Of a stretch of DNA of 36,653 nucleotides, positions 2,945 through 11,642 are shown piece by piece (positions within the stretch are counted from its first letter, which is position 1; the number at the start of each line of letters is the position of its first letter). The translations under genes and the position numbers were made by a program. The notes below the pieces were generated by a model that was not told the DNA's origin, did no database searches, and worked only from the letters and a program-made list of their open reading frames with translations. The DNA comes from Minisyncoccota bacterium (GTDB lineage Bacteria > Patescibacteriota > Microgenomatia > PFEM01 > JAFGMK01), in assembly GCA_016927565.1 (NCBI GenBank), contig JAFGMK010000012.1, positions 1 to 36,653 on the forward strand, given 5' to 3'.

Positions 2945-2953
2945 ATTATAGCA
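2945..2953 (-). promoter_or_regulatory. Extended -10 promoter of module gene 1
   Basis: On the minus strand this reads TGCTATAAT, a perfect extended -10 box, followed by 8 nt and then ATG. It lies 4 nt from the IS inverted repeat, so the -35 region is now IS sequence and shows no -35 match. Confidence 0.6.
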
Positions 2954-2956
2954 CCT

Positions 2957-3124
2957 ATGAAACTGCTTCTCCCAGTTTTACTGGGATTTTAACATAAATT
3001 TCCCACATAGGCACCTATTCGTGACGACTTTTAGTCTCACCTGATCTCGGTTCTTGTTTGATCAACACCGTTCGGGCTATTCATTCAAATCTCGCGAGCC
3101 TCAGAGCTCAGGTACAATAACGAA
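2957..3124 (-). ncRNA. Candidate bridge RNA region of the IS110-type element
   Basis: This is the non-coding interval between the transposase stop and the inverted repeat. It can form several hairpins, including CCCAG-tttta-CTGGG near 2972-2986 and GAGCCTCAGAGCTC near 3097-3110. The octamer GCACCTAT spanning the element/flank junction (2951-2958) recurs inside at 3011-3018, as expected if a loop of a bridge RNA recognises the DNA at the junction. Presence of the RNA and its exact ends are inferred. Confidence 0.4.
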
Positions 3125-4135
3125 TCAACCTCCCGGTGCTTGCTGCTGATAAACCCGATCGTCAACTAAAAGCCGCCAGGATAAAACGGCTATCTTTCTG
3201 GCGATGGCCACAATCGCTTTCTTCTTGCCCCTTCTGGCAGCTAGAGCCGCAAAGTTCAGTTTAGTTTGGATATCACTCCTAACCAGGCGATGAGCGGCCT
3301 GGACCAAAACCCAACGGGCATAAGGGTTGCCTAACTTAGTAATCCTCCCTGATCTTTTAGTTTTTCCTGATTGATAAAGGCTGGGAACCAAGCCCAGGTA
3401 GGCAGCCAGTTTTTTGCCTGAGTCAAACCTTTCAGGATCACCGATTTCAGCCAGAAGAATAAAGGCGGTGATCTCACCAAAGCCGGGAATGCTTTTTAAG
3501 ATCTCTATCTGACGATTGCCCAAACAACGCTGAGAAATAATCTTTTCCAAGGTCTTGATTCTTAACCGAGTATTAACCAGAAGTTTAAGAAATTCATCAA
3601 TCACCAGTCTTTTGGTTTCATCAAGCTTTTGTTCTTTTAACCAAGCTTGGCCTTTAGTGCCGAAAAGATCACTCATTGGCGGGTGCAAATTGGCTTTGGT
3701 TAAAACAGCGTGGATCTGATTTTTACACCAGGTCTGCTGCTTGACCAATTGACATCTGGTCCGGGCCAACTCCCGGTTAGCCTGTTCTTGTCTGGTGGTA
3801 ATGTAGCTGGGGGGCACTAAGTTAGATCTTAACAGGTGAGCCAGGGTGGTGGCATCCAAAACATCATTCTTGATCCTGGCACTGGCAATCGCCTTGGTCT
3901 TCAAAGGATGAGCCAAAGACACCGGCACCTTAAACTCTTGGAAAACCTCTACCAGCCACATCCAGTTTTGGGTGGCTTCAATCACCGTTGAGGGTTTTTC
4001 CGGACACTGAGCCAGCAAAGACAAGACTTCCTCACGGGTGTTCCCGTACTGCTGACAATGCAGAACCTCCCCGACCTGATCCATGACCACGGCCTGAAAA
4101 CTCTTTTTATGAAGATCAATTCCAAGATAATTCAT
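3125..4135 (-). CDS. IS110-family transposase (DEDD recombinase)
   Basis: A 336-residue transposase with the RuvC-like N-terminal domain: D7 (G-I-D-L-H-K-K), E53 (V-I-E-A-T), D91 and D94 (K-N-D-V-L-D-A), the expected DEDD set. The C-terminal Transposase_20 region (I-P-G-F-G-E ... L-A-A-Y-L-G-L-V-P ... S-G-R-I-T-K-L-G-N-P-Y-A-R-W) contains the Ser/Gly-rich segment bearing the family nucleophile. Length is normal and no frame disruption is seen, so it is probably active. The start is preceded by AAAGGAGGTGA, a near-perfect Shine-Dalgarno, unlike most neighbouring genes. Part of that site can pair with GTGAAGCAG/CTGCTTCAC across 4137-4178, which may restrain translation from read-through transcripts. 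Confidence 0.93.
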   Translation of the reverse strand: MNYLGIDLHKKSFQAVVMDQVGEVLHCQQYGNTREEVLSLLAQCPEKPSTVIEATQNWMWLVEVFQEFKVPVSLAHPLKTKAIASARIKNDVLDATTLAHLLRSNLVPPSYITTRQEQANRELARTRCQLVKQQTWCKNQIHAVLTKANLHPPMSDLFGTKGQAWLKEQKLDETKRLVIDEFLKLLVNTRLRIKTLEKIISQRCLGNRQIEILKSIPGFGEITAFILLAEIGDPERFDSGKKLAAYLGLVPSLYQSGKTKRSGRITKLGNPYARWVLVQAAHRLVRSDIQTKLNFAALAARRGKKKAIVAIARKIAVLSWRLLVDDRVYQQQAPGG

Positions 4136-4184
4136 TCTGCTTCACCTCCTTTCTTCTTAAAGGATATCAGTGAAGCAGTTTCAT

Positions 4185-4270
4185 GGGATCAGAATAAGTT
4201 GCTCTTCTTGTACAGAAGGGGCTTGTGGGCTTTGTTAGAATCTTTTTCTGCCTTTTTACTCTAAATTCCA
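4185..4270. other. Flank between IS and R1 copy 2
   Basis: No gene is supported here. The right part (TTTTTACTCTAAATTCCAGGGT, about 4254-4274) is shared with the left edge of R2 copy 1 at 1269-1289 and resembles the 3' flank of tRNA-His at about 14,346-14,365. This links R1, R2 and the tRNA. Confidence 0.4.
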
Positions 4271-4370
4271 GGGTCCCCTATGCAACGAAGCTTGGCCTGA
4301 GTATGCCGAAGGGTTTATCCTGAGTATGCCGAAGGATTTATCCTGAGTATGCCGAAGGATTCGAACCTGG
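4271..4370 (+). repeat. R1 repeat, copy 2 (three REP-like units)
   Basis: GGTCCCCTATGCAACGA is followed by AGCTTGG, three tandem 23-nt units each starting CCTGAGTATGCCGAAGG, and the end block GGATTCGAACCTGG. Each unit is an imperfect palindrome (TCCT...AGGA). Trailing conserved sequence after the core includes a segment near 4425-4440 (TTCCCCCACCGGCTCG) that resembles the tails of other copies. Confidence 0.8.
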
Positions 4371-5727: not shown

Positions 5728-5826
5728 GGGTCCCCTATGCAACGAAGCTTGGCCTGAGTATTCCGAAGGGTTTATCCTGAGTATTCGAAGGGTTTATCCT
5801 GAGTATGCCGAAGGATTCAAACCTGG
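5728..5826 (+). repeat. R1 repeat, copy 3 (three REP-like units)
   Basis: Same core as copy 2, with three tandem units: one has TATTCC in place of TATGCC and another has lost a base (TATTCG). The end block reads GGATTCAAACCTGG (one mismatch). The tail (GAGAAAGAGCTGG, then a T-rich run and TTATTCCCCAGCTGGCTTTTG at about 5872-5892) closely matches the tail of copy 8 at about 13,346-13,366. Confidence 0.8.
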
Positions 5827-6796: not shown

Positions 6797-6850
6797 GGGT
6801 CCCCTATGCAACGAAGCTTGGCCTGAGTATTCCGAAGGATTCGAACCTGG
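6797..6850 (+). repeat. R1 repeat, copy 4 (one REP-like unit)
   Basis: Core GGGTCCCCTATGCAACGA, AGCTTGG, one 23-nt-type unit (CCTGAGTATTCCGAAGG) and the end block GGATTCGAACCTGG. Upstream, a palindromic CGTTCGAACG (about 6776-6785) and CCCGTCA partly match the left arm of copy 5. The trailing AAAGAGAAAGAGTTA block matches copy 1. Confidence 0.78.
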
Positions 6851-9450: not shown

Positions 9451-9544
9451 AGGTTCGAATCCCGTCAGGGTCCCCTATGCAACGAAGCTTGGCCTGAGTA
9501 TTCCGAAGGGTTTATCCTGAGTATGCCGAAGGATTCGAACCTGG
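9451..9544 (+). repeat. R1 repeat, copy 5 with 12-bp outer inverted repeats
   Basis: The most complete copy. AGGTTCGAATCC (9451-9462) and GGATTCGAACCT (9531-9542) are perfect 12-bp inverted arms enclosing GGGTCCCCTATGCAACGA and two REP-like units. The tail near 9590-9610 (TTACTCCCCTACCGGCTTAT) matches tails of copies 3 and 8. The arms contain the GGTTCGAATCC sequence of a tRNA T-arm. Confidence 0.8.
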
Positions 9545-11611: not shown

Positions 11612-11642
11612 GGGTCCCCTATGCAACGACGTTTGAGTCTGG
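11612..11642 (+). repeat. R1 repeat, copy 6 (short, diverged)
   Basis: GGGTCCCCTATGCAACGACG is followed by TTTGAGTCTGG in place of TTCGAACCTGG. No tandem units are present. It separates the ART-HD gene from the small membrane protein. Confidence 0.65.

What the first reader, a model, noticed from the sequence alone, without database searches (positions are those of the whole stretch)
2951..3124. Candidate bridge RNA with a junction-matching octamer
IS1111-type elements are expected to carry a structured RNA after the transposase gene. GCACCTAT, which spans the IS/flank junction, occurs again inside this region at 3011-3018, where a guide loop could be.
Basis: partly seen in the sequence, partly recalled or inferred. 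Interest (0 to 1): 0.5.

Follow-up and report, generated by a model that had tools for sequence, protein, structure and literature searches.

The report
Guide RNA of an IS1111 element
A jumping DNA element carries a guide RNA that appears to recognise the element's own end and its landing site by base pairing; the repeated 8-letter word is where that RNA matches the joint between the element and its host, so this is a new example of a recently discovered kind of RNA-guided mobile element.

Summary
The octamer is real (about 0.005 expected). The element (2954-4191, minus strand) meets every IS1111 feature tested, and the region encodes a bridge/seek RNA. But the octamer is not a target guide. 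On the gene's strand it is ATAGG (the element's own right end) + TG (core) + C (flank): a left donor guide. Relatives with other ends carry the matching change in the RNA (ATAGATG, ATAGGTA, ATGGGTG, ATAGATT). The predicted target loop lies upstream at 3119-3086, with the same fold in 7 of 7 related elements and IS4321. Its right guide fits this insertion site (P 0.015-0.03); its left guide does not (P 0.45). The octamer's eighth base comes from the target flank: across 28 elements that RNA base equals the target base in 18 (expected 10.6, permutation P 0.0007), the next base shows no signal. This suggests a mirror image of the handshake guide known in IS621, but the test was post hoc and small. 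Verdict: ordinary member of a known kind, with one testable new detail.

The parts
2954..4191 (-). IS1111-type element (1238 bp, core counted in the left end)
   Evidence: sTIR, 7+3 extensions, transposase
3125..4135 (-). DEDD transposase, 336 aa
   Evidence: PF01548 + PF02371; D7, E53, D91, D94 invariant in the alignment; GLVPSLYQSG motif
4172..4184 (-). left subterminal inverted repeat ATGAAACTGCTTC
   Evidence: only this pair in the genome without mismatch
4185..4191 (-). 7-bp left extension TGATCCC, beginning with core TG
2957..2969 (-). right subterminal inverted repeat GAAGCAGTTTCAT
2954..2956 (-). 3-bp right extension AGG
2952..2953 (-). core TG repeated in the right flank
3064..3140 (-). 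target-binding domain of the RNA: outer helix 3140-3134/3070-3064, inner helix 3130-3119/3085-3075, internal loop, apical hairpin 3109-3096
   Evidence: z -2.2; same architecture in 7 of 7 elements there and IS4321
3111..3119 (-). predicted right target guide UAUUGUACC
   Evidence: against flank GCTATAATT scores 6 exact + 1 wobble of 9; P 0.015, 0.029 with three registers
3086..3094 (-). predicted left target guide CGAGAUUUG (by position)
   Evidence: position as in relatives; fit to this left flank not better than chance, P 0.45
3042..3046 (-). possible right donor guide GAUCA (complements TGATC of the left end); weak
   Evidence: not significant in an unconstrained test; may be part of a stem instead
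3021..3040 (-). donor-domain hairpin GUGAGACUAAAAGUCGUCAC
3012..3018 (-). left donor guide AUAGG + core UG
3011..3011 (-). candidate handshake base C (eighth base of the octamer)
2970..2986 (-). 3' hairpin UCCCAGUAAAACUGGGA

Best explanation
The region encodes the bridge RNA (seekRNA) of an IS1111-type element. The RNA begins at the 3' end of the transposase gene and has two guide domains. Domain 1 (3140-3064) holds the target guides either side of a hairpin; domain 2 holds the donor guides. [quoted passage not shown] Its last base would pair with the target strand after exchange. Shown here: ends, core, covariation of guide and end, common fold of domain 1. Inferred: transcription, binding, circle formation, strand exchange.
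For: Transposase family and motif. sTIR with 7+3 extensions and TG at both junctions. The 7-mer (5 end + 2 core) recurs once in the own non-coding region in 6 of 6 CPR-type elements, and each of three sequences occurs only in its own group; 11 of 11 elements, six sequences, (four ends placed partly by the match); L002 with ends set by its best sTIR; 24 of 27 IS4321-clade rows with a located end, of 34 rows. Domain 1: same fold in 7 of 7 with unrelated sequences, z -2.2 to -6.6; IS4321, whose target is known, same fold and a 9 of 9 right guide one base from the hairpin. Right target guide at the fixed position fits own flank in 4 of 4 TG-core elements, P 0.015, <0.00005, 0.0005, 0.046.
Against: The left target guide does not fit this insertion (P 0.45). 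With the guide position left free, the target matches are not significant except in L010. L022 and L039 right flanks fit poorly. The right donor guide is weak. Domain 2 alone has no convincing fold energy. L106 has a long sTIR but no 7-mer. No clear promoter at the joined ends. No expression data.
Confidence: 0.87

Rival explanations
1. The octamer copy is a target guide that selected this flank.
For: It spans the junction and its eighth base matches the flank; that base tracks the target in 18 of 28 elements.
Against: Seven of eight bases are element end plus core; L010 keeps the loop with a different flank; a separate loop with target complementarity exists upstream.
Confidence: 0.06
2. The octamer match is chance and the region is an untranslated tail without guide function.
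For: Window domain 1 fold z is only -2.2 and some sub-segments give z near 0; left target guide fails.
Against: 6 of 6 and 11 of 11 recurrence at one offset with covarying sequences; same fold in all 7 relatives examined.
Confidence: 0.03
3. The short repeat is a protein-binding site shared by the right end and the non-coding region (DNA-level recognition by the transposase), not an RNA guide.
For: Covariation of two DNA copies would look the same for a DNA-binding site; no RNA was measured.
Against: The copy sits next to a hairpin on the transposase strand in one fixed orientation, as expected for characterised seekRNA/bridge RNA systems (PMC11187229, PMC11208160); its next base follows the target rather than the donor in 15 of 22 cases.
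Confidence: 0.04

Closest known systems
IS1111 seekRNA (ISEc11, ISKpn4, ISPa11; PMC11187229: abstract, three of four parts of Results, passages)
   Same: Downstream non-coding region, sTIR, 7+3 extensions, transposase 330-350 aa with GL-P----S(t)G; top-strand guide lies 5' of bottom-strand guide
   Different: The parts read there name only target matches; here a donor guide is the best-supported match
IS621 bridge RNA (PMC11208160: passages and section 12; PMC11208158: passages)
   Same: Two guide loops, target and donor; nine-base left target guide; core included in guides; handshake guide beside the core-pairing bases
   Different: IS621 is IS110 group with the RNA in the other (left) end and opposite guide order; its handshake bases pair with positions left of the core, the candidate here pairs right of it
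IS4321/IS5075 (target: ends of Tn21-family transposons, from the reference title seen)
   Same: Same domain-1 fold, 9 of 9 right target guide, left donor guide ATAGATT in the RNA
   Different: 26% transposase identity; second core base differs between left end (A) and target (T)

Membership tests
IS1111 group of the IS110 family | DEDD + Transposase_20 transposase, 330-350 aa, GL-P----S(t)G motif | tested here: met
   definition from PMC11187229
IS1111 group of the IS110 family | Subterminal inverted repeats, usually 11-13 bp | tested here: met
   13 bp perfect
IS1111 group of the IS110 family | 7-bp left and 3-bp right extension | tested here: met
   TGATCCC and AGG, fixed by the TG repeat at both junctions; no empty site available
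IS1111 group of the IS110 family | Long non-coding region downstream of the gene | tested here: met
   171 bp between stop codon and right end against 49 bp between left sTIR start and start codon
Bridge RNA / seekRNA | Structured RNA with target guides | tested here: inconclusive
   Fold conserved, right guide fits, left guide does not
Bridge RNA / seekRNA | Donor guide matching the element end and core | tested here: met
   (left donor guide only; right donor guide weak)
Bridge RNA / seekRNA | RNA expressed and bound by the transposase | not testable with these tools
   needs RNA data
IS110 group (IS621-like) | Non-coding region upstream, no or short sTIR | tested here: not met

The most novel reading that the evidence does not exclude
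IS1111 bridge RNAs carry a handshake guide that is the mirror image of IS621's: the base directly 3' of the left donor guide's core pairs with the first target base to the right of the core after strand exchange, so each element's donor loop encodes one base of target preference. The octamer's eighth base is that base here.
Probability: 0.45. Interest if true: 0.6.

Novelty: new member of a known kind. Interest (0 to 1): 0.42.

Why it matters
It is a clean comparative demonstration that IS1111 elements encode a donor guide at a fixed place, including in small-genome bacteria that are probably of the candidate phyla radiation (one search for candidate phyla radiation + IS110 + transposase listed only a TIGR-Tas paper). 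It also suggests a mirrored handshake base, which would explain why one target base next to the core follows the donor loop and would matter for anyone programming IS1111 recombinases.

Tried and rejected
Octamer as target guide: rejected because L010 keeps the loop with another flank. A 3-bp core: rejected because the left end has A after TG while the RNA and right flank have C. Free-position search for target guides: not significant apart from L010, so only position-fixed tests are claimed; the positions themselves were settled after looking at matches. Right donor guide GAUCA: not claimed as shown. Fold of the donor domain as independent proof: rejected, z between -2.4 and +0.6. Promoter at the circle junction: nothing convincing. 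Domain-1 fold for L002 and L009: not resolved. ISEc45, ISLin1, IS5708 as further controls: no usable sTIR found, not scored. Other copies in this genome: none of the RNA, one degenerate relative and a fragment. Relatives of this transposase in viral contigs: none.

Limits of the counts. In one search the ends of L009, L021, L053 and L054 were placed partly with the help of the match itself. In one search, 17 loci were scanned; six were used (L102, L107, L108, L109, L111, L053), chosen among sTIR candidates because the 7-mer recurred, but without using the eighth base; L106 has a 15-scoring sTIR and no 7-mer and was left out; L103, L105, L113 and L052 gave chance-like hits and were left out; L104, L110, L112, L114, L056 and L054 gave none (L054 entered as a starred row by homology with L053). 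The label 'ends found without the match' is therefore too strong for the alpha group. In one search, 34 rows, 27 with an end, 24 with the 7-mer, 8 marked duplicate; only one per element went into, and L076/L101 (IS4321-type element at a TG site) were not counted separately. Several IS4321-clade rows share a T-rich target; collapsed to unique combinations the result is 8 of 16, expected 4.1, P 0.028. L010, L009 and L054 have no donor base in that table.

Full report
What is there. The window holds one element of 1238 bp (2954-4191) on the minus strand. Its only gene (3125-4135) matches PF01548 and PF02371 and has GLVPSLYQSG, which fits the IS1111 motif GL-P----S(t)G given in PMC11187229. Its ends carry a perfect 13-bp inverted repeat. 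Outside this lie TGATCCC on the left and AGG on the right, i.e. the 7 and 3 bp that PMC11187229 gives for IS1111, and TG follows AGG in the right flank, so TG stands at both junctions and is the likely core. The RNA region occurs once in this genome. A degenerate relative lies on another contig.

The octamer. On the gene's strand it reads ATAGGTGC: two bases of the repeat, AGG, the core TG and one flank base. Its second copy is at 3018-3011, directly after a hairpin (3040-3021). About 0.005 such octamers are expected in the region.

Comparison. Relatives were sought in 373 genomes of the class and 379 of the phylum, in other collections and from further centres. Six CPR-type elements with readable right ends were compared first. 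The 7-mer made of five end bases and two core bases occurs in the element's own non-coding region in 6 of 6; the three versions (ATAGGTG in window, L010, L006; ATAGATG in L023; ATAGGTA in L022, L039) occur only in their own groups; other non-overlapping offsets reach at most 2 of 6. With five further elements it is 11 of 11 and six versions, with the caveat that four ends were placed partly by the match. L002, whose end follows from its best inverted repeat, gives ATGGGTG. In the IS4321 clade 24 of 27 located ends (34 rows) show it; the three others differ from the RNA only at the second core base. One clear miss is L106. This is what a left donor guide predicts (PMC11208160, passages), and Durrant et al. 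predicted donor-binding nucleotides in IS1111 (section 12).

Target loop. The first 80 nt or so of the RNA, starting in the last codons of the gene, fold in 7 of 7 elements into an outer helix, an inner helix, an internal loop of about 11 nt per side and a hairpin, although the sequences are unrelated outside close pairs; z runs from -2.2 (window) to -6.6 (segments were centred on the hairpin by hand). IS4321 folds the same way and there the arm before the hairpin complements its right target flank at 9 of 9. In the four TG-core elements the same position fits the own right flank: window 6.5 of 9 (P 0.015; 0.029 with three registers), L010 9 (P below 0.00005), L006 7 (0.0005), L023 6 (0.046). 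In genome G644 three insertions of one element share the left flank TTCATA, which is in its RNA after the hairpin, while its relative L039 has GTGTA in both places. Against this, the window's own left guide does not fit its left flank (P 0.45), nor does L023's (0.29), and the right flanks of L022 and L039 fit poorly. So this copy may sit at an imperfect site or its guide has changed since insertion.

The eighth base. L010 keeps C after the core in the RNA but has A in its flank, so by itself the eighth match looked like chance. Across 12 elements, however, the RNA base after the core equals the first target base in 8 (permutation P 0.015). With 28 elements it is 18, expected 10.6 by permutation within three groups (P 0.0007); 16 of 25 without starred rows (P 0.0012); 8 of 16 after collapsing related rows (P 0.028). 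The next position shows nothing (6 of 28). Where target and donor differ, the RNA follows the target in 15 of 22, the donor in 3, neither in 4. Within nearly identical IS4321-clade RNAs it is C, G or T according to the target. In IS621 handshake guides pair with the non-cognate strand at the bases next to the core (PMC11208158, passages). IS1111 has the reverse guide order (PMC11187229), so the same base is expected on the other side, which is what is seen. A search for at least two of 'handshake', 'bridge recombinase' and 'IS110' listed only that paper and one unrelated one. The pattern was found after looking at the data and needs an independent set.

Verdict.

Noticed in passing
1671-1685, 4274-4288, 5731-5745, 6800-6814, 9471-9485, 11615-11629: TCCCCTATGCAACGA occurs 7 times in the genome, all on one strand, six of them in the first 12 kb of this window between ORFs (three neighbours tested had no Pfam match); looks like an array of repeat-separated genes.
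   Followed up: partly
2945-2953: The right flank TGCTATAAT is a perfect extended -10 box only 8 bases before the start codon of the gene 1806-2936; the element has replaced whatever lay upstream, and a transcript from it would be nearly leaderless.
   Followed up: no
4296-4364: Three tandem 23-nt copies of CCTGAGTATGCCGAAGGATTTAT just beyond the element's left end.
   Followed up: no
L006 (G000:C10:9831-10698): A decayed second IS1111 relative in the same genome (stop codon, split frame) whose end and RNA still agree over ATAGGTGTT, nine bases.
   Followed up: partly
L047 (G530:C29): A related element sits at the end of a tandem run of TTCATAA units, which is also the target word of its relatives.
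   Followed up: no
3046-3042: GAUCA recurs in window, L010 and L006 next to the donor hairpin and can pair either with the left end or with an upstream UGAUC; which one is unresolved.
   Followed up: partly
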